The notes beneath the pieces were generated by a model. It searched no databases. It saw only the letters and a program-made list of their open reading frames with translations, and was not told the DNA's origin. The translations under genes and the position numbers were made by a program. Source: Tetradesmus obliquus (Eukaryota; Chlorophyta; Chlorophyceae; Sphaeropleales; Scenedesmaceae). Taken from it: a DNA stretch of 64,000 bases. Location of the stretch: assembly GCA_030272155.1 (NCBI GenBank), contig CP126195.1:1116001-1180000 (forward strand). The letters are read 5' to 3'. Shown here one piece after another: positions 28,279 through 60,932 of this stretch. How positions within the stretch are numbered: the first letter of the stretch is position 1; the number at the start of each line of letters is the position of its first letter.

Positions 28279-28874
28279 ATGGCGCCAGCAGCAGCGGTGT
28301 GTCAGGCAGCAGCAGCAGCATGTCAAGCAGCACCTGCTGCTGATACAGCATGCTCCCTGCATGCAAGCAAGAGCACCCAAGCAGCAGCAGCAGCTGCAGG
28401 TGTGTCACCCAGCACCCCACCTCCTGCAGCAGCAGCAGCAGCAGCAACAACAAACACAGTCCCTCTGCACAAGCTGCAGCTCAGCAGTCACGCTCCGCTG
28501 CAGGCTGCCACGCGCTGCCCCTGCCCAAGCTGCAACAAGCCCCGAGCCTTTTTCTGCTATGATTGCCTCATCCCGCTAATGCAAGGCATGCCGAACTTCA
28601 CAGCCCTGCCTGTTGAAGTTCACATTGTAATGCACGGCGAGAGCAATGCGCAAGCCACCGGCACGCATGCGGCCGTGCTGGCGCCGCAGTGTGTTACTTT
28701 GTGGCGTCATAACGACGGCACGAGTCATCACCGGAGGCAGCCTGCTAGTAAGTTGCTGCTGCCGGATTGGGACCCGGCGACAACAGCAGTGCTGTACCCT
28801 GAGAGCCCAGGGACACCTGTTGTGGGGCTGTGGGGCCGGCTGGAGCTGCATGGCAACAGCATGCAGCAGCAGCT

Positions 28875-28917
<43 letters not shown>

Positions 28918-29496
28918 GAACAGAGTCAGCATGATGAAGAGGTAGACAGTGCAGGGGCTGAGCAGGCAGCTGAGCAGCAGCAGCAGCTGTTAACAGCGCT
29001 GCAGCAGCTGTCCTGCAGCCCTGCAGATGCCGCATCAGCATCAGCAGCAGCAGCAGTGCACAGAGGCTCTGAGGCTTCTGCAGAAAGCTCTGGTACCCTC
29101 ACAGACAGCAGCAGCAGCAGCACCAGTGGCCAGCAGACTAGTCCCTTTCCCTACAAGGCAGTTGTCATTTTGGAGGGCAACTGGGCCAAGGCGCGAACAC
29201 TTCTGAAGCACCCTAAGCTGGCCTCACTACCACGCCTGCAGCTGCCTCAAAATGTGCGCAGCTTGTTCTGGCGCAGAGGCACTGGCAGCTTCAGAGCTGC
29301 AGTGGACTGTGGTGTGTGCACGATAGAGGCGCTGTATCTGCTGTGCCGGCAGCTGCAGCCGCAGCCGCGGGGCTACTGGGATGATCTGCTGTGGCTGTGG
29401 GTGTATCAGCGGCAGCTGGTGCAGCAGCGGGGGTCTCGGCAGACGCGGCAGGAGATGCAGCAGAACTACGAGGCAGCTTGTGGGGCTGCTCAGTGA
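28279..29496 (+). CDS. DTW-domain protein, DTWD1-like tRNA-uridine aminocarboxypropyltransferase homologue
   Basis: Single exon, 405 residues. DTW-domain enzymes transfer the aminocarboxypropyl group of S-adenosylmethionine to a tRNA uridine (acp3U). Residues from about 78 show the Cys-rich start CPCPSCNKPRAFFCYDC, then LPVEVHIVMHG, TAVLYPESPGTP, and the C-terminal half VVILEGNWAKARTLL, FWRRG and CTIEALYLL. The family motif D-x-T-W is E-G-N-W here, and S-T-I-E-A is C-T-I-E-A, so activity is uncertain. A Gln/Ala/Ser insert of about 100 residues, including a poly-Gln run at 28861-28912, splits the catalytic domain. The first about 75 residues are Ala/Pro/Ser low complexity and may be a leader. 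The start at 28279 is the first ATG in frame. Confidence 0.8.
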
Positions 29497-31801: not shown

Positions 31802-32123
31802 GGAGGTGGTCCTGAGACACAGGCTGCTGCTTGCACAGCAGCAGCCAAGGAGGTGGTGTGGCCGGCGACCAAGGCCACGCATGGCGCAGCAGCGACAGAA
31901 GGGCAACCCTGCACTGCCGCTGCATTGCCGTTGTTGGCAGGGGGTACCACCCTGGGCAGCATGCCGCAGGAGACCACCCCGCCGTAATGGGCCAGCACCG
32001 GAAGTCCCGCATGCTGCCCGGCCCGCCGCCTCATTGCACCCGGGCCAGAAGGTGTGGCTGGCGCCAGGAGCCACACCAGGCAGGCAGGTGACAGCAGCAA
32101 CCGCTGCTGCTGCACCGCCACAC

Positions 32124-32350
32124 CAAAGCACACAGCTGCATCACAGCTGTGGCTGACAAACCAAAGCACACAGCTGCAACACAACTGTGGCTGACAAACC
32201 AAAGCACACAGCTGCAACACAGCTGTGGCCGACGAAATGAGAAGCACACAGCTGCAACACAGCTGTGGCCGACGAAATGAGAAGCACGCAGCTGCAACAC
32301 AGCCGTGGCCGACAGACCAAACAGCACACAGCTGCAAAACACAACGATAA
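32124..32350. repeat. Minisatellite of 38-44 bp units
   Basis: Units starting caaagcacacagctgcaaca at 32124, 32162 and 32200, then variants with cgacgaaatgagaag. Two more units appear at 33613-33682 in the duplicated block. They are related to the 114-bp repeat that follows. Confidence 0.8.
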
Positions 32351-32860
32351 CAAAGCATGCAGCTGACAGAGGCAAATCAGCACGCACACACAACTACAAC
32401 CGCTGCTCTGCCTGGCGTAATAGTCAAAGCGCACAGCTGCAAAACGCCGCTGTGGCCCAAAGATAACAAAGCATGCAGCTGACAGAAGCAAATCAGCACA
32501 CACACAGCTGCAACCGCTGCTCTGCCTGGCATAATAGCCAAAGCGCACAGCTGCAAAACGCCGCTGTGGCCCAAAGATAACAAAGCATGCAGCTGACAGA
32601 AGCAAATCAGCACACACACAGCTGCAACCGCTGCTCTGCCTGGCATAATAGCCAAAGCGCACAGCTGCAAAACGCTGCTGTGGCTCAAAGATAACAAAGC
32701 ATGCAGCTGACATAAGCAAATCAGCACACACACAGCTGCAACTGCTGCTCTGCCTGGCATAACAGCCAAAGCGCACAGCTGCAGAACGCCGCTGTGGCCC
32801 AAAAATCACAAAGCATGCAGCTGCAACAACCGCTACGGCTGACACAAGACCAAACAGCAC
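32351..32860. repeat. 114-bp satellite, four full units
   Basis: The word caaagcatgcagctgaca begins at 32351, 32467, 32581 and 32695, with a diverged start at 32809: spacings 116, 114, 114, 114. Because 114 is divisible by 3 the minus strand stays open as a 38-residue repeat (…AACFVIFGPQRRFAAVRF…), but a second minus frame is also open, so coding is not supported. Confidence 0.85.
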
Positions 32861-42130: not shown

Positions 42131-42929
42131 ACTTGGCGGCGTGAAGCGCTGTGCGTTGATTTGTCGGTCTTGAACACTGACTGTACACTTGCTGGGGTGC
42201 TTGCCCTCAGGGCCCGTGCAGCCGGGTGCGGTGTCACATTGACGAGCTTCTGTGCTTGAAGTCGGGCGTGTGTTGCTGCTGGTGTCTGCATTCAACTGGC
42301 AGCTGCGCTGTGTGCACGGCCGGGCTGGACAGTATAAGCACTGGGGCCGAGGGAGCTGGCTGAGGGACGTATGTAGCGTGCTTGCTTCACTAATGGCAGT
42401 CTTGTTAGTTGCATGTAGGCTTCTGCTCTGCAGGTACATACCTTGCTGCATTGCAACAGGGCGAGAGCCTCGTGCTGGCTTGTCACCATCTGTGTGTGTA
42501 CAGTTATGAAGTGGGCTGTAGCGATGTGTTAGCTGCTGTTGGGCGGCATCGCCAGCCAGTGTGTGCTACAGTCTCGGGCATTTGCTTGTGCTCTTGCTTC
42601 CGCTTACGTTGGCTGCTTTCAGCGTGTCCCTTTGAGGAGCAAGCAGGTTGCAGTTGGTGATGCTTTGCAGTAGTTGTGGCTGGCATTCGATTGAGTGACA
42701 GAGATGTGTGTTGCCATGTAGCTGCGCAACATCTTGTACATGGTGCAGCAGTTTTGTACAGCAGTGCAGCAGTTGTAGGTCATTGTCGCGTCAAACATGG
42801 TTTGAAGCTGCCAGCAAGAAATCGACTTTTGATACTTATGTCACTCACTTGCATAAAACTCATGTTGATTCTATGCGTTTCAAGGCACCTAGGCCATTTT
42901 TGTGTTCAGGTTGTCCTTCACGTGGTATC
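42117..42929. other. Downstream of the SET gene; no supported gene
   Basis: About 800 bases of T/G-rich sequence, presumably 3' UTR and spacer before the inverted-repeat element. No TGTAA and no recognisable exon was found. Confidence 0.5.
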
Positions 42930-43652
42930 CAGCTGGGTATGGTACAAACGTAGCATCTGCATTTTGCAACAAATCAACACAGCTTGCAAGCAGACAGCCA
43001 TGCTGGCATAGCAACCTGCTGTATGTGGCAGGCACAGTAAGGCACAGCTGCCAGTGCTGCTGCTTTGGTTTGCTTGCATCCCAACTGCACAGCAGGGCCC
43101 CCACCTGCCAGCAGCAGCAGCTTCAAACTGCTAGTAATTTTGAGCTCCAGAATTCGCCTTGATCACACAAGAAGGATGTTTGCAGGAAACTGTGTAGAAT
43201 ACTAGTCCTCAACAAACTCTGTGCAGCCACACTAGCTGCACGCGCGCAGCAGCTGCCGGTGGGCCTGAAGCGGTGTTGCGCACTATGTAACAGATATGAC
43301 AGTTGAAACTGTATGTGCAGCGCACAGCGCCAAGCAGCAGAGCGCAACAGCAGCGGCAGGGCACTTGGCACACCAGAACTGCAGTGCCTGATCAGCCAGC
43401 AAGGGAAGCCCAGAAGTATTACATTACACATCAAAACATGTTGCAGGCAGCAGCACCCACAGCAACACTCTACAGCGCAAGTTAACATATGTAACAGTCG
43501 AGTCGGGGCACTTCAGGGCAACGTGTTTTTAGCTCTTTTCTTGCAGCACACTGTGCCACTGCTAACAGCTCAAATTGATTTAGATTCGTCGTTGAAAGCT
43601 TGACATTTATATGTAGGCCACTTGTTCGCTACGTTTGTACCATGCCCAGCTG
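42930..43652. mobile_element. 723-bp segment with 25-bp terminal inverted repeats, copy 1
   Basis: It begins CAGCTGGGTATGGTAC followed by AAACGTAGC and ends with the reverse complement of the same 25 bases with one mismatch (T versus C at position 9). This is a MITE-like structure. No coding region is recognised inside. It is joined without spacer to the first transposase unit; no target-site duplication can be read (left flank ggtatc, right flank agaccg). Confidence 0.75.
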
Positions 43653-43760
43653 AGACCGGTCAAACTCCATGATGCCGCAGGCTGTTGTTTGACCTGACCA
43701 GTTACTTCTGTTCACACTGCTGCTAGAAGCACAGCTAACATATCCATACGTTTTGGATTC

Positions 43761-45964
43761 ATGCCTGCAGGGGGGCTGTCCATGGTGCGCAAGCACCCTT
43801 CAGGATGGAAGAGCAACCGCAGCACCACGGCCATGAGGGTGGCGGCGGTGGTGTGTGTGATAATGGCTTTGACCACAGCTGACGAAAAGTTTACGCCCGC
43901 ATATTATTACAGAGAGCAGTACCCTGACTACGCCAAGGAGGTACACGGGGACCTGAACCGGTTCTGCAAACTTCATCACAAGAACTTCACAGCAAACGGC
44001 ACAGTGGCTACACCCAAGCATGGCGGCAGGCCCTCAAATGTCCCACATGCTGTCGCCTTCCATGCCAGCACAATATTCAAGGCTGGCAAGGTGGTAAAGG
44101 CCTACCCATCGGCAGATTCAAAGAGAAAGGTTGATGTGCACGTGTGGTGGACTTCAATCGAAGTCGCATGTCAGGAAAATGACACACTGCGCCAGCTGTG
44201 CACTGACTACAACATCACACCCAAGAGACTGCTGAAGTACATGAAATGGGCTGACCCCGACCTGGTGCGCAGGAGAATAGATGTGAAGCTGGACTTGACA
44301 AAGATACAGAAACAAAGGCGAAAGGCAGCAGCTGCGGCGCTGTGGCAGAAGTACCAAAGTGACCCCGACATGCTGCAGCGCATATATTTCATTGATGAGT
44401 GCAAATTCTGGATGTCAGACCTGGCAGGCGGCTCCGTCAAGGTCTATTGTGATGCACACAATGAAAACGTGCATGCTGTGCTGCCATGCAAATGGATGCG
44501 CAAGGGCAAGGACGCAGAGCCGGTCAAGTTGCACTTTGTCTGCGCCGTCAACGCTGTGCACGGGCCCGTCTACTGCAATTTTGTCACCGGCACAACAGAC
44601 AACAAGGACCATGCTGGCAACCTCAATGTACCGTACATGGTGAGTGTGCGCTGCTACTGCGCAGGCGCCTGCCATCGAAAGACATGCCAGCCCTGCTGTA
44701 CTGTGTAGTAACAGTCCCGCAGAGCTTTTTTTAGTGCTGTAGTGAAGCTGCAGCGCTGCCCGTCCTCTGCTGTGAACATAACAGCAGAGTAACTTGGTGA
44801 CAGTACAATGACACCACCTGCAGCAGCAAGCTGGAAATTAATGTGCAAGGATTGGTGCATGTCACATCCGCGCGTGCTCACGCGCAGCACACTGACCCCT
44901 GGCTGCAGCCAGTTGTCATATGCTGCAGCGCAGAACTCAAAGTCGCGCTCCAGCACCTGCTGCCTGCTGCTGCTGTAATAACCCTTGTCATGACATGAGC
45001 CATCAGCTTGAATCAGCATGTTGTGCTGTGCATGGAGGAAATCAATCCGCCCATCCCACCAGTCCACTGCTACCTGAGCACACATACTGCTGCTGATGCC
45101 TAACCAATACAGCATGCACACCAGCTGCTCCTCGCTTGTGTGCATGTAGCCCATGCATGTGCCAACCATATCAGCCAGCACACATGCACACATCTTGCAC
45201 TGAAGCGCTGCTGCTGTGGCGACTGCACGCGGCGCGCAGAACTTGAAGTGCTGCACACCTGGCAAGCAGCCAGTCAAGCCCCAGAACAATCTCTGCCCCC
45301 TCATAGACTTGGTGATGTATCTGACCTTGTCTGCACTGAGCCTGATGTAGAAGCGTCCCATCGCATCCATCCACACCGCTGCGTTGCGCTCCTGCGCTGC
45401 TAACAAGGCTGCGCGCTGCCAATCCGGCAATTCTTGCACCTGCAGTTGAAGGACAAACCAACCCAGCAGGCCAAGAGCATGACTCAGCTGGAGTTTGTTC
45501 ACTGCATGATGGAGATCAGAGACATAGCCAACCAACAGCAGGCGCAGCGCGGCACTACGCCGCTGTACATCTTTGACAACCCAAGTGTTCACCTGGGGAA
45601 GGATGGCCTACAGATGTTGGTTGCAGGTGGCATCAATGAAGATCAACTGCTGCACATTGCACCCTACTCCCCAGATTTCAACAAGCCCATTGAACATGCA
45701 TTTGGCAGCCTCAAAGCAGCCTTCCGCAACTACTTGTATAACAGCTGCCAGCTGGGTGGTGCTGATGTGAAGCCGCGAGACCTGCAGCACGGCCTGTACA
45801 ACACCTTTATGAAGATCACAGCTGCATCTGTCATGGCTGATGTATTGAAGCTGCCAGATTTGTGGAACATGGTGCGCAGCCGCAAGAGGAGTCTTTGTGT
45901 GTGCCGAGACGGGAAGCAGCGCCGCGGCACTGCTGGCGACTACCCCAGGAAAGACCAGCGCTGA
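43761..45964 (+). CDS. DDE transposase of Tc1/mariner (DDE_3) type, unit 1
   Basis: Two exons, 43761-44639 and 45446-45964, join in phase 0 to give 465 residues; intron 44640-45445 is GT-AG. The catalytic triad is visible: Asp212 in YFIDECKFW, Asp337 in YIFDNPSVH, and Glu376 in YSPDFNKPIEHAFGSLK. The last two are separated by 38 residues and the usual N-P-I-E reads N-K-P-I-E. The N-terminal half is basic, with a probable helix-turn-helix region (about 90-165: GRPSNVPHAVAF … NITPKRLLKYMKW). An ATG at 43782 is in better context than 43761 and may be the true start; an upstream exon cannot be excluded. All six copies keep intact frames, so the enzyme may be active. Confidence 0.85.
44654..45370 (-). 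CDS. Antisense intron-nested Vsr/DUF559-like endonuclease ORF, unit 1
   Basis: 238 codons from ATG 45370, lying wholly within the transposase intron (44640-45445) on the opposite strand; the open frame continues upstream without an ATG to beyond the intron edge. The fold pattern of Vsr/DUF559 PD-(D/E)XK nucleases is visible in order: a helix TSEEQLVCMLYWLGI (about 78-92), strand GRIDFLHAQHN with Asp110, strand MLIQADGSCH with Asp123 and His127 (the family's usual acidic position before it is Gln121), ERDFEFCAAAYDN (Asp143), and GVSVLRVS (158-165). Residue diversity (Trp, Tyr, Phe, Asp, Lys) is unlike the Gln/Ala/Cys shadows elsewhere. Such enzymes nick or cut DNA. Expression and activity are inferred; similarity was judged by eye. 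Confidence 0.65.
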   Translation of the reverse strand: MDAMGRFYIRLSADKVRYITKSMRGQRLFWGLTGCLPGVQHFKFCAPRAVATAAALQCKMCACVLADMVGTCMGYMHTSEEQLVCMLYWLGISSSMCAQVAVDWWDGRIDFLHAQHNMLIQADGSCHDKGYYSSSRQQVLERDFEFCAAAYDNWLQPGVSVLRVSTRGCDMHQSLHINFQLAAAGGVIVLSPSYSAVMFTAEDGQRCSFTTALKKALRDCYYTVQQGWHVFRWQAPAQ

Positions 45965-47213
45965 GTCTGCTGTTGTGCTGCTGCATGGCATGTAGGGATT
46001 GTGGCTGTCAGCTGCATGCAAGATGGCTGGCCAGCAGTGCACAGGGTGTCACTCAGAGAGCCCTTGAGCTCACCTGTTTGAGGGCACCTGCGCTTGTCGC
46101 CGTCCTGCATGTTCGCACCGCCCGGGGCTTGGGAGGTGCTGGCACCATGCTGCTGTAGGGTGGTTACTTCCTGGTGTTCACCTGAGAGCGAGTGTGGGAA
46201 CAAAATGGCATGTTCAGAAGCTTATTGTATGAGTAAACTACATGTGGATGTTGTGCTTTGGTGCTCAGACTTGTCAGGAGCGGTTCCTGCTTCAAACGAC
46301 TGCTGCAAGGCAGCAAGGCACTTGGTGGCCATTTCACATACAGGCATTTGCAGTCATGCTGAATTGCCGAATGTAATGGTAAAATTCCTGTCATAATTCA
46401 ACTACGCTCGAAGCTCTTGAACATGGCTCCTGCTGCTGTCACTCGCGTTGGTTGTGACGACTGTTGGCCTGCCAAGCGATATGCACGGAGCCTGCAAGAA
46501 ACCTTGCGGTCGATTAACTTTTAAATTTGACGATTGATTTAAGCATGGCTTGAGCCGAAATAAACTGCGATATGGTGAAGAACTTCAAGACGGAAAGGTG
46601 CCCTGAAACAAGCCTGCTCCGAGCCACACAGCTGCCACGCTGCCAACTTATCATCGTCGACACATTATGCAACGTACCTTTGGTTGAAGCAGAAAACCAA
46701 TCCTGACGGGCCCTCGCAAGCCCACGTTGCAGGTGAGCCTGACGGGTCAACACGGATGTCCAGAGCACTGCAGCTCGATCGCGTTGCTGCAGCACCTACA
46801 TACAATTTGTTTTGAACATTGAACGACGTTAAACACAGCGCAGTGCTGAAAGGCTTCGCCAAAAAATTAGGTGGCAGCAGTGAGGCACCTGCTGGCACAT
46901 GCTGCTGCTGTCACGCCCACCAACAACTGCAGTTGAAAAACACATGCCACCGTGATTCACAGCACACATAGCTGTAACGTTTCCTGTTGTCTGCTGCTGC
47001 TGCTGCTCCTGCCCAGGCAGATATCATATATCGCAAACAGTGCTACTGCCGCAGTAAAATCAGCTGCATACCCAGCAGCAGCAGGAGCACATCAGCCATA
47101 GCATAAAAAGGTAGGTGTGCACTTCAGGCACCAAGTCCAGGAACAGCAACAGAAGGGATGCAGTGCAGGCTATGAACTGCTGCAGCAAAGGCTGGCATGC
47201 AATCACAGTCTCA
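45965..47213. other. 3' part of the tandem unit; no supported gene
   Basis: About 1.25 kb. Minus frames at 46514-46795 and 46665-46898 are open but overlap each other and match nothing known. A short CTG run is at about 46994-47008. The unit tail ends gcaatcacagtctca. The same stretch follows in units 2-5. Confidence 0.5.
46372..46376 (+). terminator. Candidate TGTAA poly(A) signal of the transposase
   Basis: TGTAA 408 bases after the transposase stop in unit 1; the same site recurs in each complete unit. A second TGTAA follows at about 46973. Confidence 0.4.
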
Positions 47214-47322
47214 GAGACCGGTCAAACTCCATGATGCCGCAGGCTGTTGTTTGACCTGACCAGTTACTTCTGTTCACACTGCTGCTAGAAGCACAGCTAA
47301 CATATCCATACGTTTTGGATTC

Positions 47323-49526
47323 ATGCCTGCAGGGGGGCTGTCCATGGTGCGCAAGCACCCTTCAGGATGGAAGAGCAACCGCAGCACCACGGCCATGAGG
47401 GTGGCGGCGGTGGTGTGTGTGATAATGGCTTTGACCACAGCTGACGAAAAGTTTACGCCCGCATATTATTACAGAGAGCAGTACCCTGACTACGCCAAGG
47501 AGGTACACGGGGACCTGAACCGGTTCTGCAAACTTCATCACAAGAACTTCACAGCAAACGGCACAGTGGCTACACCCAAGCATGGCGGCAGGCCCTCAAA
47601 TGTCCCACATGCTGTCGCCTTCCATGCCAGCACAATATTCAAGGCTGGCAAGGTGGTAAAGGCCTACCCATCGGCAGATTCAAAGAGAAAGGTTGATGTG
47701 CACGTGTGGTGGACTTCAATCGAAGTCGCATGTCAGGAAAATGACACACTGCGCCAGCTGTGCACTGACTACAACATCACACCCAAGAGACTGCTGAAGT
47801 ACATGAAATGGGCTGACCCCGACCTGGTGCGCAGGAGAATAGATGTGAAGCTGGACTTGACAAAGATACAGAAACAAAGGCGAAAGGCAGCAGCTGCGGC
47901 GCTGTGGCAGAAGTACCAAAGTGACCCCGACATGCTGCAGCGCATATATTTCATTGATGAGTGCAAATTCTGGATGTCAGACCTGGCAGGCGGCTCCGTC
48001 AAGGTCTATTGTGATGCACACAATGAAAACGTGCATGCTGTGCTGCCATGCAAATGGATGCGCAAGGGCAAGGACGCAGAGCCGGTCAAGTTGCACTTTG
48101 TCTGCGCCGTCAACGCTGTGCACGGGCCCGTCTACTGCAATTTTGTCACCGGCACAACAGACAACAAGGACCATGCTGGCAACCTCAATGTACCGTACAT
48201 GGTGAGTGTGCGCTGCTACTGCGCAGGCGCCTGCCATCGAAAGACATGCCAGCCCTGCTGTACTGTGTAGTAACAGTCCCGCAGAGCTTTTTTTAGTGCT
48301 GTAGTGAAGCTGCAGCGCTGCCCGTCCTCTGCTGTGAACATAACAGCAGAGTAACTTGGTGACAGTACAATGACACCACCTGCAGCAGCAAGCTGGAAAT
48401 TAATGTGCAAGGATTGGTGCATGTCACATCCGCGCGTGCTCACGCGCAGCACACTGACCCCTGGCTGCAGCCAGTTGTCATATGCTGCAGCGCAGAACTC
48501 AAAGTCGCGCTCCAGCACCTGCTGCCTGCTGCTGCTGTAATAACCCTTGTCATGACATGAGCCATCAGCTTGAATCAGCATGTTGTGCTGTGCATGGAGG
48601 AAATCAATCCGCCCATCCCACCAGTCCACTGCTACCTGAGCACACATACTGCTGCTGATGCCTAACCAATACAGCATGCACACCAGCTGCTCCTCGCTTG
48701 TGTGCATGTAGCCCATGCATGTGCCAACCATATCAGCCAGCACACATGCACACATCTTGCACTGAAGCGCTGCTGCTGTGGCGACTGCACGCGGCGCGCA
48801 GAACTTGAAGTGCTGCACACCTGGCAAGCAGCCAGTCAAGCCCCAGAACAATCTCTGCCCCCTCATAGACTTGGTGATGTATCTGACCTTGTCTGCACTG
48901 AGCCTGATGTAGAAGCGTCCCATCGCATCCATCCACACCGCTGCGTTGCGCTCCTGCGCTGCTAACAAGGCTGCGCGCTGCCAATCCGGCAATTCTTGCA
49001 CCTGCAGTTGAAGGACAAACCAACCCAGCAGGCCAAGAGCATGACTCAGCTGGAGTTTGTTCACTGCATGATGGAGATCAGAGACATAGCCAACCAACAG
49101 CAGGCGCAGCGCGGCACTACGCCGCTGTACATCTTTGACAACCCAAGTGTTCACCTGGGGAAGGATGGCCTACAGATGTTGGTTGCAGGTGGCATCAATG
49201 AAGATCAACTGCTGCACATTGCACCCTACTCCCCAGATTTCAACAAGCCCATTGAACATGCATTTGGCAGCCTCAAAGCAGCCTTCCGCAACTACTTGTA
49301 TAACAGCTGCCAGCTGGGTGGTGCTGATGTGAAGCCGCGAGACCTGCAGCACGGCCTGTACAACACCTTTATGAAGATCACAGCTGCATCTGTCATGGCT
49401 GATGTATTGAAGCTGCCAGATTTGTGGAACATGGTGCGCAGCCGCAAGAGGAGTCTTTGTGTGTGCCGAGACGGGAAGCAGCGCCGCGGCACTGCTGGCG
49501 ACTACCCCAGGAAAGACCAGCGCTGA
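47323..49526 (+). CDS. DDE transposase, unit 2
   Basis: Exons 47323-48201 and 49008-49526; identical to the unit 1 product. Confidence 0.85.
48216..48932 (-). CDS. Antisense endonuclease-like ORF, unit 2
   Basis: Identical to the unit 1 ORF; nested in intron 48202-49007. Confidence 0.65.
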   Translation of the reverse strand: MDAMGRFYIRLSADKVRYITKSMRGQRLFWGLTGCLPGVQHFKFCAPRAVATAAALQCKMCACVLADMVGTCMGYMHTSEEQLVCMLYWLGISSSMCAQVAVDWWDGRIDFLHAQHNMLIQADGSCHDKGYYSSSRQQVLERDFEFCAAAYDNWLQPGVSVLRVSTRGCDMHQSLHINFQLAAAGGVIVLSPSYSAVMFTAEDGQRCSFTTALKKALRDCYYTVQQGWHVFRWQAPAQ

Positions 49527-50884
49527 GTCTGCTGTTGTGCTGCTGCATGGCATGTAGGGATTGTGGCTGTCAGCTGCATGCAAGATGGCTGGCCAGCAGT
49601 GCACAGGGTGTCACTCAGAGAGCCCTTGAGCTCACCTGTTTGAGGGCACCTGCGCTTGTCGCCGTCCTGCATGTTCGCACCGCCCGGGGCTTGGGAGGTG
49701 CTGGCACCATGCTGCTGTAGGGTGGTTACTTCCTGGTGTTCACCTGAGAGCGAGTGTGGGAACAAAATGGCATGTTCAGAAGCTTATTGTATGAGTAAAC
49801 TACATGTGGATGTTGTGCTTTGGTGCTCAGACTTGTCAGGAGCGGTTCCTGCTTCAAACGACTGCTGCAAGGCAGCAAGGCACTTGGTGGCCATTTCACA
49901 TACAGGCATTTGCAGTCATGCTGAATTGCCGAATGTAATGGTAAAATTCCTGTCATAATTCAACTACGCTCGAAGCTCTTGAACATGGCTCCTGCTGCTG
50001 TCACTCGCGTTGGTTGTGACGACTGTTGGCCTGCCAAGCGATATGCACGGAGCCTGCAAGAAACCTTGCGGTCGATTAACTTTTAAATTTGACGATTGAT
50101 TTAAGCATGGCTTGAGCCGAAATAAACTGCGATATGGTGAAGAACTTCAAGACGGAAAGGTGCCCTGAAACAAGCCTGCTCCGAGCCACACAGCTGCCAC
50201 GCTGCCAACTTATCATCGTCGACACATTATGCAACGTACCTTTGGTTGAAGCAGAAAACCAATCCTGACGGGCCCTCGCAAGCCCACGTTGCAGGTGAGC
50301 CTGACGGGTCAACACGGATGTCCAGAGCACTGCAGCTCGATCGCGTTGCTGCAGCACCTACATACAATTTGTTTTGAACATTGAACGACGTTAAACACAG
50401 CGCAGTGCTGAAAGGCTTCGCCAAAAAATTAGGTGGCAGCAGTGAGGCACCTGCTGGCACATGCTGCTGCTGTCACGCCCACCAACAACTGCAGTTGAAA
50501 AACACATGCCACCGTGATTCACAGCACACATAGCTGTAACGTTTCCTGTTGTCTGCTGCTGCTGCTGCTCCTGCCCAGGCAGATATCATATATCGCAAAC
50601 AGTGCTACTGCCGCAGTAAAATCAGCTGCATACCCAGCAGCAGCAGGAGCACATCAGCCATAGCATAAAAAGGTAGGTGTGCACTTCAGGCACCAAGTCC
50701 AGGAACAGCAACAGAAGGGATGCAGTGCAGGCTATGAACTGCTGCAGCAAAGGCTGGCATGCAATCACAGTCTCAGAGACCGGTCAAACTCCATGATGCC
50801 GCAGGCTGTTGTTTGACCTGACCAGTTACTTCTGTTCACACTGCTGCTAGAAGCACAGCTAACATATCCATACGTTTTGGATTC

Positions 50885-53088
50885 ATGCCTGCAGGGGGGC
50901 TGTCCATGGTGCGCAAGCACCCTTCAGGATGGAAGAGCAACCGCAGCACCACGGCCATGAGGGTGGCGGCGGTGGTGTGTGTGATAATGGCTTTGACCAC
51001 AGCTGACGAAAAGTTTACGCCCGCATATTATTACAGAGAGCAGTACCCTGACTACGCCAAGGAGGTACACGGGGACCTGAACCGGTTCTGCAAACTTCAT
51101 CACAAGAACTTCACAGCAAACGGCACAGTGGCTACACCCAAGCATGGCGGCAGGCCCTCAAATGTCCCACATGCTGTCGCCTTCCATGCCAGCACAATAT
51201 TCAAGGCTGGCAAGGTGGTAAAGGCCTACCCATCGGCAGATTCAAAGAGAAAGGTTGATGTGCACGTGTGGTGGACTTCAATCGAAGTCGCATGTCAGGA
51301 AAATGACACACTGCGCCAGCTGTGCACTGACTACAACATCACACCCAAGAGACTGCTGAAGTACATGAAATGGGCTGACCCCGACCTGGTGCGCAGGAGA
51401 ATAGATGTGAAGCTGGACTTGACAAAGATACAGAAACAAAGGCGAAAGGCAGCAGCTGCGGCGCTGTGGCAGAAGTACCAAAGTGACCCCGACATGCTGC
51501 AGCGCATATATTTCATTGATGAGTGCAAATTCTGGATGTCAGACCTGGCAGGCGGCTCCGTCAAGGTCTATTGTGATGCACACAATGAAAACGTGCATGC
51601 TGTGCTGCCATGCAAATGGATGCGCAAGGGCAAGGACGCAGAGCCGGTCAAGTTGCACTTTGTCTGCGCCGTCAACGCTGTGCACGGGCCCGTCTACTGC
51701 AATTTTGTCACCGGCACAACAGACAACAAGGACCATGCTGGCAACCTCAATGTACCGTACATGGTGAGTGTGCGCTGCTACTGCGCAGGCGCCTGCCATC
51801 GAAAGACATGCCAGCCCTGCTGTACTGTGTAGTAACAGTCCCGCAGAGCTTTTTTTAGTGCTGTAGTGAAGCTGCAGCGCTGCCCGTCCTCTGCTGTGAA
51901 CATAACAGCAGAGTAACTTGGTGACAGTACAATGACACCACCTGCAGCAGCAAGCTGGAAATTAATGTGCAAGGATTGGTGCATGTCACATCCGCGCGTG
52001 CTCACGCGCAGCACACTGACCCCTGGCTGCAGCCAGTTGTCATATGCTGCAGCGCAGAACTCAAAGTCGCGCTCCAGCACCTGCTGCCTGCTGCTGCTGT
52101 AATAACCCTTGTCATGACATGAGCCATCAGCTTGAATCAGCATGTTGTGCTGTGCATGGAGGAAATCAATCCGCCCATCCCACCAGTCCACTGCTACCTG
52201 AGCACACATACTGCTGCTGATGCCTAACCAATACAGCATGCACACCAGCTGCTCCTCGCTTGTGTGCATGTAGCCCATGCATGTGCCAACCATATCAGCC
52301 AGCACACATGCACACATCTTGCACTGAAGCGCTGCTGCTGTGGCGACTGCACGCGGCGCGCAGAACTTGAAGTGCTGCACACCTGGCAAGCAGCCAGTCA
52401 AGCCCCAGAACAATCTCTGCCCCCTCATAGACTTGGTGATGTATCTGACCTTGTCTGCACTGAGCCTGATGTAGAAGCGTCCCATCGCATCCATCCACAC
52501 CGCTGCGTTGCGCTCCTGCGCTGCTAACAAGGCTGCGCGCTGCCAATCCGGCAATTCTTGCACCTGCAGTTGAAGGACAAACCAACCCAGCAGGCCAAGA
52601 GCATGACTCAGCTGGAGTTTGTTCACTGCATGATGGAGATCAGAGACATAGCCAACCAACAGCAGGCGCAGCGCGGCACTACGCCGCTGTACATCTTTGA
52701 CAACCCAAGTGTTCACCTGGGGAAGGATGGCCTACAGATGTTGGTTGCAGGTGGCATCAATGAAGATCAACTGCTGCACATTGCACCCTACTCCCCAGAT
52801 TTCAACAAGCCCATTGAACATGCATTTGGCAGCCTCAAAGCAGCCTTCCGCAACTACTTGTATAACAGCTGCCAGCTGGGTGGTGCTGATGTGAAGCCGC
52901 GAGACCTGCAGCACGGCCTGTACAACACCTTTATGAAGATCACAGCTGCATCTGTCATGGCTGATGTATTGAAGCTGCCAGATTTGTGGAACATGGTGCG
53001 CAGCCGCAAGAGGAGTCTTTGTGTGTGCCGAGACGGGAAGCAGCGCCGCGGCACTGCTGGCGACTACCCCAGGAAAGACCAGCGCTGA
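50885..53088 (+). CDS. DDE transposase, unit 3
   Basis: Exons 50885-51763 and 52570-53088; identical to the unit 1 product. Confidence 0.85.
51778..52494 (-). CDS. Antisense endonuclease-like ORF, unit 3
   Basis: Identical to the unit 1 ORF; nested in intron 51764-52569. Confidence 0.65.
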   Translation of the reverse strand: MDAMGRFYIRLSADKVRYITKSMRGQRLFWGLTGCLPGVQHFKFCAPRAVATAAALQCKMCACVLADMVGTCMGYMHTSEEQLVCMLYWLGISSSMCAQVAVDWWDGRIDFLHAQHNMLIQADGSCHDKGYYSSSRQQVLERDFEFCAAAYDNWLQPGVSVLRVSTRGCDMHQSLHINFQLAAAGGVIVLSPSYSAVMFTAEDGQRCSFTTALKKALRDCYYTVQQGWHVFRWQAPAQ

Positions 53089-54446
53089 GTCTGCTGTTGT
53101 GCTGCTGCATGGCATGTAGGGATTGTGGCTGTCAGCTGCATGCAAGATGGCTGGCCAGCAGTGCACAGGGTGTCACTCAGAGAGCCCTTGAGCTCACCTG
53201 TTTGAGGGCACCTGCGCTTGTCGCCGTCCTGCATGTTCGCACCGCCCGGGGCTTGGGAGGTGCTGGCACCATGCTGCTGTAGGGTGGTTACTTCCTGGTG
53301 TTCACCTGAGAGCGAGTGTGGGAACAAAATGGCATGTTCAGAAGCTTATTGTATGAGTAAACTACATGTGGATGTTGTGCTTTGGTGCTCAGACTTGTCA
53401 GGAGCGGTTCCTGCTTCAAACGACTGCTGCAAGGCAGCAAGGCACTTGGTGGCCATTTCACATACAGGCATTTGCAGTCATGCTGAATTGCCGAATGTAA
53501 TGGTAAAATTCCTGTCATAATTCAACTACGCTCGAAGCTCTTGAACATGGCTCCTGCTGCTGTCACTCGCGTTGGTTGTGACGACTGTTGGCCTGCCAAG
53601 CGATATGCACGGAGCCTGCAAGAAACCTTGCGGTCGATTAACTTTTAAATTTGACGATTGATTTAAGCATGGCTTGAGCCGAAATAAACTGCGATATGGT
53701 GAAGAACTTCAAGACGGAAAGGTGCCCTGAAACAAGCCTGCTCCGAGCCACACAGCTGCCACGCTGCCAACTTATCATCGTCGACACATTATGCAACGTA
53801 CCTTTGGTTGAAGCAGAAAACCAATCCTGACGGGCCCTCGCAAGCCCACGTTGCAGGTGAGCCTGACGGGTCAACACGGATGTCCAGAGCACTGCAGCTC
53901 GATCGCGTTGCTGCAGCACCTACATACAATTTGTTTTGAACATTGAACGACGTTAAACACAGCGCAGTGCTGAAAGGCTTCGCCAAAAAATTAGGTGGCA
54001 GCAGTGAGGCACCTGCTGGCACATGCTGCTGCTGTCACGCCCACCAACAACTGCAGTTGAAAAACACATGCCACCGTGATTCACAGCACACATAGCTGTA
54101 ACGTTTCCTGTTGTCTGCTGCTGCTGCTGCTCCTGCCCAGGCAGATATCATATATCGCAAACAGTGCTACTGCCGCAGTAAAATCAGCTGCATACCCAGC
54201 AGCAGCAGGAGCACATCAGCCATAGCATAAAAAGGTAGGTGTGCACTTCAGGCACCAAGTCCAGGAACAGCAACAGAAGGGATGCAGTGCAGGCTATGAA
54301 CTGCTGCAGCAAAGGCTGGCATGCAATCACAGTCTCAGAGACCGGTCAAACTCCATGATGCCGCAGGCTGTTGTTTGACCTGACCAGTTACTTCTGTTCA
54401 CACTGCTGCTAGAAGCACAGCTAACATATCCATACGTTTTGGATTC

Positions 54447-56650
54447 ATGCCTGCAGGGGGGCTGTCCATGGTGCGCAAGCACCCTTCAGGATGGAAGAGC
54501 AACCGCAGCACCACGGCCATGAGGGTGGCGGCGGTGGTGTGTGTGATAATGGCTTTGACCACAGCTGACGAAAAGTTTACGCCCGCATATTATTACAGAG
54601 AGCAGTACCCTGACTACGCCAAGGAGGTACACGGGGACCTGAACCGGTTCTGCAAACTTCATCACAAGAACTTCACAGCAAACGGCACAGTGGCTACACC
54701 CAAGCATGGCGGCAGGCCCTCAAATGTCCCACATGCTGTCGCCTTCCATGCCAGCACAATATTCAAGGCTGGCAAGGTGGTAAAGGCCTACCCATCGGCA
54801 GATTCAAAGAGAAAGGTTGATGTGCACGTGTGGTGGACTTCAATCGAAGTCGCATGTCAGGAAAATGACACACTGCGCCAGCTGTGCACTGACTACAACA
54901 TCACACCCAAGAGACTGCTGAAGTACATGAAATGGGCTGACCCCGACCTGGTGCGCAGGAGAATAGATGTGAAGCTGGACTTGACAAAGATACAGAAACA
55001 AAGGCGAAAGGCAGCAGCTGCGGCGCTGTGGCAGAAGTACCAAAGTGACCCCGACATGCTGCAGCGCATATATTTCATTGATGAGTGCAAATTCTGGATG
55101 TCAGACCTGGCAGGCGGCTCCGTCAAGGTCTATTGTGATGCACACAATGAAAACGTGCATGCTGTGCTGCCATGCAAATGGATGCGCAAGGGCAAGGACG
55201 CAGAGCCGGTCAAGTTGCACTTTGTCTGCGCCGTCAACGCTGTGCACGGGCCCGTCTACTGCAATTTTGTCACCGGCACAACAGACAACAAGGACCATGC
55301 TGGCAACCTCAATGTACCGTACATGGTGAGTGTGCGCTGCTACTGCGCAGGCGCCTGCCATCGAAAGACATGCCAGCCCTGCTGTACTGTGTAGTAACAG
55401 TCCCGCAGAGCTTTTTTTAGTGCTGTAGTGAAGCTGCAGCGCTGCCCGTCCTCTGCTGTGAACATAACAGCAGAGTAACTTGGTGACAGTACAATGACAC
55501 CACCTGCAGCAGCAAGCTGGAAATTAATGTGCAAGGATTGGTGCATGTCACATCCGCGCGTGCTCACGCGCAGCACACTGACCCCTGGCTGCAGCCAGTT
55601 GTCATATGCTGCAGCGCAGAACTCAAAGTCGCGCTCCAGCACCTGCTGCCTGCTGCTGCTGTAATAACCCTTGTCATGACATGAGCCATCAGCTTGAATC
55701 AGCATGTTGTGCTGTGCATGGAGGAAATCAATCCGCCCATCCCACCAGTCCACTGCTACCTGAGCACACATACTGCTGCTGATGCCTAACCAATACAGCA
55801 TGCACACCAGCTGCTCCTCGCTTGTGTGCATGTAGCCCATGCATGTGCCAACCATATCAGCCAGCACACATGCACACATCTTGCACTGAAGCGCTGCTGC
55901 TGTGGCGACTGCACGCGGCGCGCAGAACTTGAAGTGCTGCACACCTGGCAAGCAGCCAGTCAAGCCCCAGAACAATCTCTGCCCCCTCATAGACTTGGTG
56001 ATGTATCTGACCTTGTCTGCACTGAGCCTGATGTAGAAGCGTCCCATCGCATCCATCCACACCGCTGCGTTGCGCTCCTGCGCTGCTAACAAGGCTGCGC
56101 GCTGCCAATCCGGCAATTCTTGCACCTGCAGTTGAAGGACAAACCAACCCAGCAGGCCAAGAGCATGACTCAGCTGGAGTTTGTTCACTGCATGATGGAG
56201 ATCAGAGACATAGCCAACCAACAGCAGGCGCAGCGCGGCACTACGCCGCTGTACATCTTTGACAACCCAAGTGTTCACCTGGGGAAGGATGGCCTACAGA
56301 TGTTGGTTGCAGGTGGCATCAATGAAGATCAACTGCTGCACATTGCACCCTACTCCCCAGATTTCAACAAGCCCATTGAACATGCATTTGGCAGCCTCAA
56401 AGCAGCCTTCCGCAACTACTTGTATAACAGCTGCCAGCTGGGTGGTGCTGATGTGAAGCCGCGAGACCTGCAGCACGGCCTGTACAACACCTTTATGAAG
56501 ATCACAGCTGCATCTGTCATGGCTGATGTATTGAAGCTGCCAGATTTGTGGAACATGGTGCGCAGCCGCAAGAGGAGTCTTTGTGTGTGCCGAGACGGGA
56601 AGCAGCGCCGCGGCACTGCTGGCGACTACCCCAGGAAAGACCAGCGCTGA
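54447..56650 (+). CDS. DDE transposase, unit 4
   Basis: Exons 54447-55325 and 56132-56650; identical to the unit 1 product. Confidence 0.85.
55340..56056 (-). CDS. Antisense endonuclease-like ORF, unit 4
   Basis: Identical to the unit 1 ORF; nested in intron 55326-56131. Confidence 0.65.
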   Translation of the reverse strand: MDAMGRFYIRLSADKVRYITKSMRGQRLFWGLTGCLPGVQHFKFCAPRAVATAAALQCKMCACVLADMVGTCMGYMHTSEEQLVCMLYWLGISSSMCAQVAVDWWDGRIDFLHAQHNMLIQADGSCHDKGYYSSSRQQVLERDFEFCAAAYDNWLQPGVSVLRVSTRGCDMHQSLHINFQLAAAGGVIVLSPSYSAVMFTAEDGQRCSFTTALKKALRDCYYTVQQGWHVFRWQAPAQ

Positions 56651-57897
56651 GTCTGCTGTTGTGCTGCTGCATGGCATGTAGGGATTGTGGCTGTCAGCTG
56701 CATGCAAGATGGCTGGCCAGCAGTGCACAGGGTGTCACTCAGAGAGCCCTTGAGCTCACCTGTTTGAGGGCACCTGCGCTTGTCGCCGTCCTGCATGTTC
56801 GCACCGCCCGGGGCTTGGGAGGTGCTGGCACCATGCTGCTGTAGGGTGGTTACTTCCTGGTGTTCACCTGAGAGCGAGTGTGGGAACAAAATGGCATGTT
56901 CAGAAGCTTATTGTATGAGTAAACTACATGTGGATGTTGTGCTTTGGTGCTCAGACTTGTCAGGAGCGGTTCCTGCTTCAAACGACTGCTGCAAGGCAGC
57001 AAGGCACTTGGTGGCCATTTCACATACAGGCATTTGCAGTCATGCTGAATTGCCGAATGTAATGGTAAAATTCCTGTCATAATTCAACTACGCTCGAAGC
57101 TCTTGAACATGGCTCCTGCTGCTGTCACTCGCGTTGGTTGTGACGACTGTTGGCCTGCCAAGCGATATGCACGGAGCCTGCAAGAAACCTTGCGGTCGAT
57201 TAACTTTTAAATTTGACGATTGATTTAAGCATGGCTTGAGCCGAAATAAACTGCGATATGGTGAAGAACTTCAAGACGGAAAGGTGCCCTGAAACAAGCC
57301 TGCTCCGAGCCACACAGCTGCCACGCTGCCAACTTATCATCGTCGACACATTATGCAACGTACCTTTGGTTGAAGCAGAAAACCAATCCTGACGGGCCCT
57401 CGCAAGCCCACGTTGCAGGTGAGCCTGACGGGTCAACACGGATGTCCAGAGCACTGCAGCTCGATCGCGTTGCTGCAGCACCTACATACAATTTGTTTTG
57501 AACATTGAACGACGTTAAACACAGCGCAGTGCTGAAAGGCTTCGCCAAAAAATTAGGTGGCAGCAGTGAGGCACCTGCTGGCACATGCTGCTGCTGTCAC
57601 GCCCACCAACAACTGCAGTTGAAAAACACATGCCACCGTGATTCACAGCACACATAGCTGTAACGTTTCCTGTTGTCTGCTGCTGCTGCTGCTCCTGCCC
57701 AGGCAGATATCATATATCGCAAACAGTGCTACTGCCGCAGTAAAATCAGCTGCATACCCAGCAGCAGCAGGAGCACATCAGCCATAGCATAAAAAGGTAG
57801 GTGTGCACTTCAGGCACCAAGTCCAGGAACAGCAACAGAAGGGATGCAGTGCAGGCTATGAACTGCTGCAGCAAAGGCTGGCATGCAATCACAGTCT

Positions 57898-58620
57898 CAG
57901 CTGGGTATGGTACAAACGTAGCATCTGCATTTTGCAACAAATCAACACAGCTTGCAAGCAGACAGCCATGCTGGCATAGCAACCTGCTGTATGTGGCAGG
58001 CACAGTAAGGCACAGCTGCCAGTGCTGCTGCTTTGGTTTGCTTGCATCCCAACTGCACAGCAGGGCCCCCACCTGCCAGCAGCAGCAGCTTCAAACTGCT
58101 AGTAATTTTGAGCTCCAGAATTCGCCTTGATCACACAAGAAGGATGTTTGCAGGAAACTGTGTAGAATACTAGTCCTCAACAAACTCTGTGCAGCCACAC
58201 TAGCTGCACGCGCGCAGCAGCTGCCGGTGGGCCTGAAGCGGTGTTGCGCACTATGTAACAGATATGACAGTTGAAACTGTATGTGCAGCGCACAGCGCCA
58301 AGCAGCAGAGCGCAACAGCAGCGGCAGGGCACTTGGCACACCAGAACTGCAGTGCCTGATCAGCCAGCAAGGGAAGCCCAGAAGTATTACATTACACATC
58401 AAAACATGTTGCAGGCAGCAGCACCCACAGCAACACTCTACAGCGCAAGTTAACATATGTAACAGTCGAGTCGGGGCACTTCAGGGCAACGTGTTTTTAG
58501 CTCTTTTCTTGCAGCACACTGTGCCACTGCTAACAGCTCAAATTGATTTAGATTCGTCGTTGAAAGCTTGACATTTATATGTAGGCCACTTGTTCGCTAC
58601 GTTTGTACCATGCCCAGCTG
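57898..58620. mobile_element. 723-bp segment with terminal inverted repeats, copy 2
   Basis: Matches 42930-43652 at an offset of 14,968 bases, with identical open frames. Here the inverted ends are longer than in copy 1: GTCTCAGCTGGG on the left faces CCCAGCTGAGAC on the right, because unit ends flank both sides. Confidence 0.8.
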
Positions 58621-58728
58621 AGACCGGTCAAACTCCATGATGCCGCAGGCTGTTGTTTGACCTGACCAGTTACTTCTGTTCACACTGCTGCTAGAAGCAC
58701 AGCTAACATATCCATACGTTTTGGATTC

Positions 58729-60932
58729 ATGCCTGCAGGGGGGCTGTCCATGGTGCGCAAGCACCCTTCAGGATGGAAGAGCAACCGCAGCACCACGGCC
58801 ATGAGGGTGGCGGCGGTGGTGTGTGTGATAATGGCTTTGACCACAGCTGACGAAAAGTTTACGCCCGCATATTATTACAGAGAGCAGTACCCTGACTACG
58901 CCAAGGAGGTACACGGGGACCTGAACCGGTTCTGCAAACTTCATCACAAGAACTTCACAGCAAACGGCACAGTGGCTACACCCAAGCATGGCGGCAGGCC
59001 CTCAAATGTCCCACATGCTGTCGCCTTCCATGCCAGCACAATATTCAAGGCTGGCAAGGTGGTAAAGGCCTACCCATCGGCAGATTCAAAGAGAAAGGTT
59101 GATGTGCACGTGTGGTGGACTTCAATCGAAGTCGCATGTCAGGAAAATGACACACTGCGCCAGCTGTGCACTGACTACAACATCACACCCAAGAGACTGC
59201 TGAAGTACATGAAATGGGCTGACCCCGACCTGGTGCGCAGGAGAATAGATGTGAAGCTGGACTTGACAAAGATACAGAAACAAAGGCGAAAGGCAGCAGC
59301 TGCGGCGCTGTGGCAGAAGTACCAAAGTGACCCCGACATGCTGCAGCGCATATATTTCATTGATGAGTGCAAATTCTGGATGTCAGACCTGGCAGGCGGC
59401 TCCGTCAAGGTCTATTGTGATGCACACAATGAAAACGTGCATGCTGTGCTGCCATGCAAATGGATGCGCAAGGGCAAGGACGCAGAGCCGGTCAAGTTGC
59501 ACTTTGTCTGCGCCGTCAACGCTGTGCACGGGCCCGTCTACTGCAATTTTGTCACCGGCACAACAGACAACAAGGACCATGCTGGCAACCTCAATGTACC
59601 GTACATGGTGAGTGTGCGCTGCTACTGCGCAGGCGCCTGCCATCGAAAGACATGCCAGCCCTGCTGTACTGTGTAGTAACAGTCCCGCAGAGCTTTTTTT
59701 AGTGCTGTAGTGAAGCTGCAGCGCTGCCCGTCCTCTGCTGTGAACATAACAGCAGAGTAACTTGGTGACAGTACAATGACACCACCTGCAGCAGCAAGCT
59801 GGAAATTAATGTGCAAGGATTGGTGCATGTCACATCCGCGCGTGCTCACGCGCAGCACACTGACCCCTGGCTGCAGCCAGTTGTCATATGCTGCAGCGCA
59901 GAACTCAAAGTCGCGCTCCAGCACCTGCTGCCTGCTGCTGCTGTAATAACCCTTGTCATGACATGAGCCATCAGCTTGAATCAGCATGTTGTGCTGTGCA
60001 TGGAGGAAATCAATCCGCCCATCCCACCAGTCCACTGCTACCTGAGCACACATACTGCTGCTGATGCCTAACCAATACAGCATGCACACCAGCTGCTCCT
60101 CGCTTGTGTGCATGTAGCCCATGCATGTGCCAACCATATCAGCCAGCACACATGCACACATCTTGCACTGAAGCGCTGCTGCTGTGGCGACTGCACGCGG
60201 CGCGCAGAACTTGAAGTGCTGCACACCTGGCAAGCAGCCAGTCAAGCCCCAGAACAATCTCTGCCCCCTCATAGACTTGGTGATGTATCTGACCTTGTCT
60301 GCACTGAGCCTGATGTAGAAGCGTCCCATCGCATCCATCCACACCGCTGCGTTGCGCTCCTGCGCTGCTAACAAGGCTGCGCGCTGCCAATCCGGCAATT
60401 CTTGCACCTGCAGTTGAAGGACAAACCAACCCAGCAGGCCAAGAGCATGACTCAGCTGGAGTTTGTTCACTGCATGATGGAGATCAGAGACATAGCCAAC
60501 CAACAGCAGGCGCAGCGCGGCACTACGCCGCTGTACATCTTTGACAACCCAAGTGTTCACCTGGGGAAGGATGGCCTACAGATGTTGGTTGCAGGTGGCA
60601 TCAATGAAGATCAACTGCTGCACATTGCACCCTACTCCCCAGATTTCAACAAGCCCATTGAACATGCATTTGGCAGCCTCAAAGCAGCCTTCCGCAACTA
60701 CTTGTATAACAGCTGCCAGCTGGGTGGTGCTGATGTGAAGCCGCGAGACCTGCAGCACGGCCTGTACAACACCTTTATGAAGATCACAGCTGCATCTGTC
60801 ATGGCTGATGTATTGAAGCTGCCAGATTTGTGGAACATGGTGCGCAGCCGCAAGAGGAGTCTTTGTGTGTGCCGAGACGGGAAGCAGCGCCGCGGCACTG
60901 CTGGCGACTACCCCAGGAAAGACCAGCGCTGA
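58729..60932 (+). CDS. DDE transposase, unit 5
   Basis: Exons 58729-59607 and 60414-60932; identical to the unit 1 product. Confidence 0.85.
59622..60338 (-). CDS. Antisense endonuclease-like ORF, unit 5
   Basis: Identical to the unit 1 ORF; nested in intron 59608-60413. Confidence 0.65.
   Translation of the reverse strand: MDAMGRFYIRLSADKVRYITKSMRGQRLFWGLTGCLPGVQHFKFCAPRAVATAAALQCKMCACVLADMVGTCMGYMHTSEEQLVCMLYWLGISSSMCAQVAVDWWDGRIDFLHAQHNMLIQADGSCHDKGYYSSSRQQVLERDFEFCAAAYDNWLQPGVSVLRVSTRGCDMHQSLHINFQLAAAGGVIVLSPSYSAVMFTAEDGQRCSFTTALKKALRDCYYTVQQGWHVFRWQAPAQ

What the first reader, a model, noticed from the sequence alone, without database searches (positions are those of the whole stretch)
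44640..45445. Vsr/DUF559-like endonuclease ORF nested antisense inside the intron of a DDE transposase
Seen: a 238-codon minus-strand ORF fills 717 of the 806 intron bases and lies wholly within it, in every unit. Its order of motifs (helix with E-E, IDF, ADG-x-x-H, R-D, GVSVLRV) matches Vsr/DUF559 PD-(D/E)XK nucleases. Known: homing nucleases of this fold live in introns and target their own insertion sites; Tc1/mariner transposases usually lack introns and accessory nucleases. Inference: the intron may be a mobile insert brought by the nuclease, or the nuclease may help the transposon (excision processing, target choice, tandem amplification).
Basis: partly seen in the sequence, partly recalled or inferred. 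Interest (0 to 1): 0.9.

Follow-up and report, generated by a model that had tools for sequence, protein, structure and literature searches.

The report
Composite transposon with interleaved antisense nuclease
A jumping gene that piles up into long tandem arrays carries, woven back-to-front into an intron of its own transposase gene, a second gene for a probable DNA-cutting enzyme, an arrangement closely parallel to one reported from animals but made here from different parts.

Summary
The antisense ORF encodes a real protein: 43 profile homologs, 0 of 1000 neutral simulations reach its between-family identity, and a confident model (pLDDT 88.8) has Vsr endonuclease as best solved match. Two additions matter. 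(1) It is probably the second exon of a gene whose short first exon lies beyond transposase exon 2, so the genes are mutually nested and share one CTGCAG palindrome as both splice acceptors (predicted; no RNA). (2) The unit belongs to a composite-like DNA transposon: a 3,559-bp interior between 723-bp direct repeats with 25-bp inverted ends, and 3-bp target duplications at 10 of 11 insertions tested, including the window's 111-kb, 27-unit array. That is the anatomy of KolobokP (animals; Kojima & Bao 2022), but with an IS630/DDE_3-like transposase and a Vsr-like nuclease. Most likely the nuclease makes breaks that drive conversion and tandem growth; this is inferred. One conversion tract between two families lies on the nuclease exon, as homing predicts. 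Against a current need: among 25 recent copies the nuclease evolves neutrally while the transposase is constrained. No intronless relative was found, so intron homing is unproven.

The parts
42930..43652 (+). Long terminal direct repeat (LTDR, 723 bp) with its own 25-bp inverted ends CAGCTGGGYATGGTACAAACGTAGC; left end of the array, preceded by the target duplication ATC (42927-42929)
43653..47211 (+). Internal region (INT, 3559 bp) of the first unit; further INTs at 47215-50773, 50777-54335, 54339-57897, 58621-62179 and 62185-64000 (cut by the window)
   Evidence: identical copies and junctions
43761..44639 (+). Transposase exon 1 (first D of the triad probably in FIDE; assignment inferred)
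   Evidence: ORF; nine homologs 57-99% identical over this exon
44640..45445 (+). Transposase intron (GTGAGT...CTGCAG), boundaries conserved in the four element families compared
45446..45964 (+). Transposase exon 2, DDE_3/IS630-like (38 residues between the second D and the E; assignment inferred)
44654..45439 (-). Nuclease exon B: Vsr/DUF559-like PD-(D/E)XK protein, with stop codon
45440..45445 (.). Palindrome CTGCAG, predicted splice acceptor of both genes, one on each strand; same in 25 of 25 F1 copies and in four of four families
46074..46148 (-). Predicted nuclease exon A: 25 codons from ATG, basic in F2-F4, followed by the donor GTGAGC (46073-46068)
45440..46073 (-). Predicted nuclease intron, containing transposase exon 2
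47212..47214 (.). CAG at an INT-INT junction where an LTDR is missing (also 50774-50776 and 54336-54338; CAGTG at 62180-62184)
57898..58620 (+). Second LTDR in the window

Best explanation
The ORF is the main exon of an accessory nuclease gene of a composite-like DNA transposon (LTDR-INT-LTDR). The interior carries a DDE transposase on one strand and a Vsr/DUF559-like PD-(D/E)XK nuclease on the other; each gene's last exon lies in the other's intron (exon A of the nuclease is predicted). The transposase, we infer, inserts the element with a 3-bp target duplication and can also excise single LTDRs. After insertion the element grows in place into arrays. The nuclease most likely makes site-specific breaks in element DNA whose repair from neighbouring or related copies gives gene conversion and unequal exchange, the role proposed for the unrelated nuclease of KolobokP. 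Shown here: a conserved protein, its fold class, the composite anatomy, target duplications, an array bounded by one duplication, one conversion tract. Inferred: expression, cleavage, its site, its causal role in amplification.
Confidence: 0.55

Rival explanations
1. Classical homing: the intron with its nuclease is itself a mobile insert that cuts intronless transposase genes and copies itself in, with co-conversion of flanking exon.
For: F3 equals F4 at 205 of 249 variable intron sites, 13 of 15 in the last 57 bases of exon 1 and 26 of 32 in the first 139 of exon 2, against 44 of 126 farther upstream. Between two F1 subgroups the nuclease exon has 0-3 synonymous changes per about 168 sites, the transposase exons 6-10 per 193 and 7-10 per 111. 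Neutral decay within one genome with long-term conservation fits the homing-gene cycle (recalled).
Against: Nine of nine transposase homologs run on with V-S after the exon end, as a read-through donor would (their DNA was not seen); no contiguous junction among the best 150 of 540 candidates; no Rfam intron family; the nuclease gene probably extends outside the intron; in the F1 subgroups the low-divergence stretch is broader than the intron.
Confidence: 0.17
2. The nuclease is a transposition cofactor, for instance cutting the second strand at the ends as TnsA does beside TnsB (recalled).
Against: If required for transposition it should share the transposase's constraint; among recent copies it does not.
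Confidence: 0.1
3. A decaying passenger: once functional, now without effect in this genome; arrays grow by ordinary unequal crossing over between the long direct repeats.
For: pN/pS 1.25 in F1, and a one-base gap in one of 25 copies; 14 of 150 copies with stops; derived changes at conserved positions in the window's copy; direct repeats alone can give unequal exchange.
Against: 136 of 150 copies have no stop, which youth alone also explains; D135, Q146, G149 and H152 are invariant columns among 39 sequences. Stops are no sign special to the nuclease: three of the 25 copies have one in transposase exon 1.
Confidence: 0.15
4. A chance antisense open frame.
For: Long open frames arise by chance more easily in G+C-rich DNA.
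Against: 1 of 5000 shuffles; homologs and neutral simulation; confident fold.
Confidence: 0.01

Closest known systems
KolobokP composite-like DNA transposons (Kojima & Bao 2022, PMC9587614; 7 animal phyla)
   Same: LTDR-INT-LTDR; LTDRs with own short inverted ends; solo LTDRs; multimers flanked by short target duplications (3-5 bp there, 3 bp here); LTDRs missing between some interiors, with a few bases changed at the junction; transposase on one strand and an accessory nuclease on the other
   Different: transposase is DDE_3/IS630-like; element ends are CA...TG, not RR...YY; nuclease is Vsr/DUF559-like PD-(D/E)XK, not His-Me finger; genes probably mutually nested, nuclease not simply downstream
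Vsr endonuclease and DUF559 (PF04480) PD-(D/E)XK proteins
   Same: fold and order of core motifs; Vsr and 3hrl among the best solved matches
   Different: Q in place of E in the ADG motif; extra N-terminal part with conserved C and H; no relative among bacterial and archaeal contigs at the sensitivity
Intron-encoded homing endonucleases, including antisense ones in nuclear group I introns (recalled) and the Vsr (EDxHD) type (named in PMC5718144, passages read)
   Same: nuclease coded in an intron, antisense; one conversion tract with flanking exon
   Different: GT-AG intron in a transposase without Rfam match; no empty site known
IS630/Tc1/mariner transposases
   Same: DDE_3 region just below the Pfam cut-off; weak NCBIfam IS630 match (25.2 bits, cut-off 100)
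   Different: 3-bp target duplication; composite ends

Membership tests
KolobokP | Interior flanked by long terminal direct repeats that have their own inverted ends | tested here: met
KolobokP | Multimers and solo LTDRs with short target duplications | tested here: met
   window array ATC/ATC, one solo LTDR GGG/GGG; 10 of 11 insertions read
KolobokP | Termini 5'-RR...YY-3' | tested here: not met
   termini CA...TG
KolobokP | Kolobok transposase | tested here: inconclusive
   matches DDE_3 and IS630 models; no Kolobok sequence was at hand for direct comparison
KolobokP | His-Me finger (I-PpoI-like) nuclease | tested here: not met
   DUF559 hit above cut-off in relative P0052; PD-(D/E)XK-type core in the model, Vsr the best match
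Vsr/DUF559 PD-(D/E)XK fold | alpha-beta-beta-beta-alpha-beta core carrying D and the ADG motif | tested here: met
   D135, Q146, D148, H152
DUF559 (PF04480) | Score above the Pfam cut-off | tested here: inconclusive
   window protein 13.7 bits against 20.6; P0052 28.6 bits, the only one of 10 family members scanned to pass; family search of the whole genome: none
Vsr | T:G mismatch nicking (recalled) | not testable with these tools
   needs an enzyme assay
Homing endonuclease in a mobile intron | Intronless alleles or relatives exist | tested here: inconclusive
   none in 9 homologs nor in the best 150 of 540 candidates
Homing endonuclease in a mobile intron | Self-splicing group I or II intron | tested here: inconclusive
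   no Rfam match to E 1 in 42900-47300; GT...AG ends conserved
Homing endonuclease in a mobile intron | Co-conversion of flanking exon | tested here: inconclusive
   one clear tract, F3-F4
Tc1/mariner | TA target duplication (recalled) | tested here: not met
   3-bp duplications of varied sequence
Tc1/mariner / IS630 | DDE_3 domain above cut-off | tested here: inconclusive
   28.5 bits in F2 and F3, 23.5-24.1 in F1, cut-off 28.6

The most novel reading that the evidence does not exclude
A second, independent invention of the KolobokP way of life, from an unrelated transposase and an unrelated nuclease, in which the nuclease gene behaves as a homing gene housed in a spliceosomal intron: it spreads between transposon families by conversion, and the mutual nesting of the two genes (one palindrome serving as both acceptors) ties the two selfish genes together.
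Probability: 0.3. Interest if true: 0.9.

Novelty: new variant of a known kind. Interest (0 to 1): 0.78.

Why it matters
KolobokP's authors wrote that it has long terminal direct repeats 'unlike any other DNA transposons' (passage). A second case with different parts would mean that long direct repeats, a transposase and a break-making nuclease form a recurrent solution, and would make testable how such an element builds an array of over 100 kb from what looks like one insertion. Two protein genes whose exons lie in each other's introns, with one palindrome as both splice acceptors, would also be an unusual gene layout.

Tried and rejected
Viral contigs gave no relative except one short match (query residues 43-67, L057), not followed; bacterial and archaeal contigs gave none. 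Rfam gave nothing. The algal polyadenylation word TGTAA (recalled) showed no shared place near either stop codon. Exon A: conserved ATG, length, frame and donor in four of four families, and the only phase-0 candidate with GTGAG in F1 45965-47213, but nucleotide identity there is 0.69 (F1-F3) and 0.61 (F1-F4) against 0.58-0.64 in the flanks, so base conservation adds little. Four proteins of the 30%-identical clade (P0024, P0034, P0036, P0037) begin with another N terminus, MGS... or MSAG..., unlike exon A. A TnsA-like role was considered and put low. Paper searches found one close system, PMC9587614; the library holds open-licence papers only, so absence of this element from print is not shown. 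The Foldseek searches of 'pdb' and 'viral' did not run; the 'pdb_via' list is the only fold comparison. L078, fetched, was not used; the 25 copies were picked by hand from the 150 rows and include the nine. Insertions of F2, F3 and F4 were not tested for target duplications. A family search with PF04480 found nothing in the genome over the cut-off.

Full report
What was checked. The intron 44640-45445 joins two in-frame transposase exons, and the minus-strand frame is open through it and beyond. The six units in the window are identical over the compared stretch.

The protein is real. Twenty-four homologs were found with the sequence and 43 with a profile, of 8000 candidates scored; the distant ones are 27-34% identical. 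Four element families were compared within the genome: F1 (the window), F2 (C4), F3 (C13), F4 (C6); F2 and F3 are about 98.6% identical. The protein identity between F1 and F3 (0.58) and F4 (0.55) is reached by 0 of 1000 neutral simulations each; simulated copies have 6.4 and 7.1 stops on average, the real ones 1 (F3, which ends a little earlier) and 0 (F4). dN/dS of nuclease exon B is 0.50-0.52 between F1 and the others and 0.56-0.61 between F4 and F2 or F3; of the transposase exons 0.23-0.36 for pairs of similar divergence. Near-identical pairs give unstable ratios: nuclease F2-F3 0.93; exon 1 F1-F1b 1.40 and F2-F3 0.09; exon 2 F2-F3 0.30.

Gene structure. The part shared with relatives starts at about the CTGCAG at 45440-45445, upstream of the first ATG. 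Reading the minus strand further, all four families keep an ATG, 25 in-frame codons and a GTGAGC donor at 46148-46074, in phase with an acceptor at the same CTGCAG. Among 25 F1 copies the acceptor is unchanged in 25; one copy is cut off before exon A, and in the other 24 the ATG context is unchanged in 24 and the donor in 23, the last one keeping GTGAG. If right, transposase exon 2 lies in the nuclease intron and nuclease exon B in the transposase intron. This is a prediction from DNA; base conservation over exon A is weak, and no RNA was available.

The element around it. The unit is part of a composite: a 723-bp direct repeat with 25-bp inverted ends on each side of a 3,559-bp interior. Six isolated pairs of repeats 5 kb apart appear alone (40 of 292 candidates scored). 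Eleven F1 insertions had both flanks read: L050, L052, L053, those six monomers, one solo repeat and the window's array. Ten have exact 3-bp duplications; L053 has TAT against TCT. By the coordinates the window's array holds 27 interiors and 21 repeats over 111 kb, begins and ends with a repeat, and has seven interior-interior junctions; it is bounded by ATC on both sides, which points to growth from one insertion. The four window junctions that lack a repeat keep CAG (three) or CAGTG (one). Paired repeats of a monomer differ by one base in L050 and in L052, but are 95.9% identical in L053.

Comparison with the known. Kojima and Bao (PMC9587614; abstract, Results parts 1 and 2 of 3, Discussion part 1 of 2, and found passages) describe KolobokP: the same architecture, multimers, solo repeats, loss of repeats between interiors, and a transposase and homing-type nuclease on opposite strands. 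They propose transposition plus nuclease-induced unequal crossover. The present element differs in nuclease fold, in its termini, in gene nesting and, as far as the models tell, in transposase (DDE_3 23.5-28.5 bits, cut-off 28.6; IS630 E 9.8e-6, 25.2 bits, cut-off 100). It works like KolobokP in anatomy; it is not a member by the features tested. A 2017 review (PMC5718144, passages only) lists six homing-nuclease types, Vsr (EDxHD) among them, and says that at least two, GIY-YIG and PD-(D/E)XK, are found in eukaryotic transposable elements; it names Vsr for none there.

Mechanism evidence. Among sites variable in F1, F3 and F4 (from 44055 on), F3 equals F4 at 44 of 126 (44055-44402), 21 of 39 (to 44582), 13 of 15 (to 44639), 205 of 249 (intron), 26 of 32 (to 45584), 66 of 113 (to 45964), 57 of 100 (to 46200) and 258 of 508 (to 47213); the best tract is 44709-45546, gain 54.1 against at most 12.9 in 100 shuffles. 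A scan of raw divergence, which does not allow for constraint, gave 44393-46039. So the nuclease exon was exchanged between families with short flanks, once. Against a present need for it, 25 F1 copies show neutral change in the nuclease (pN/pS 1.25) and constraint in the transposase (0.38, 0.28), although three of the 25 also have a stop in transposase exon 1. In two F1 subgroups synonymous change is likewise lower in the nuclease exon than in the transposase exons, but the low stretch is broader than the intron. These patterns suit a homing-like gene that decays between episodes of exchange, or a gene that is now idle.

Verdict. Conserved protein gene and composite element: very likely. Break-making role in conversion and array growth: somewhat more likely than not, untested. 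Intron homing in the strict sense: possible, without the empty site that would show it.

Noticed in passing
L052 (C5:6496501-6502500) and C5:1700389-1713233: The direct repeat can lie in the opposite orientation relative to the interior, on both sides of the same interior in L052; around C5:1.70-1.71 Mb repeats occur on both strands although the interiors listed there lie on one.
   Followed up: partly
C3:7158670-7213596, C13:1053216-1265737, C5:4680837-4710804: Runs of units in both orientations; on C13 they extend over about 210 kb. Whether each is one insertion was not tested.
   Followed up: no
homologs P0001-P0055: 15 of the 55 proteins have a longest contig of 4.17-4.47 kb, about one repeat plus interior, and one of 3563 bp, about one interior: perhaps collapsed tandem arrays in other organisms.
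   Followed up: no
window array, nuclease exon B codons 182 and 201: The window's array has V and N where the other eight F1 copies compared have G.
   Followed up: partly
window 28279-29496 (+): ORF of 405 aa with a DTW domain (Pfam 51.8 bits, cut-off 33.7), probably a host gene.
   Followed up: no
window 32115-32823: Tandem repeats of period 40 and 114.
   Followed up: no
start of transposase exon 2 in F2-F4 (aligned just after window 45445): A lysine-rich stretch is, on the other strand, the pyrimidine tract before the predicted nuclease acceptor: one DNA stretch may serve both genes.
   Followed up: no
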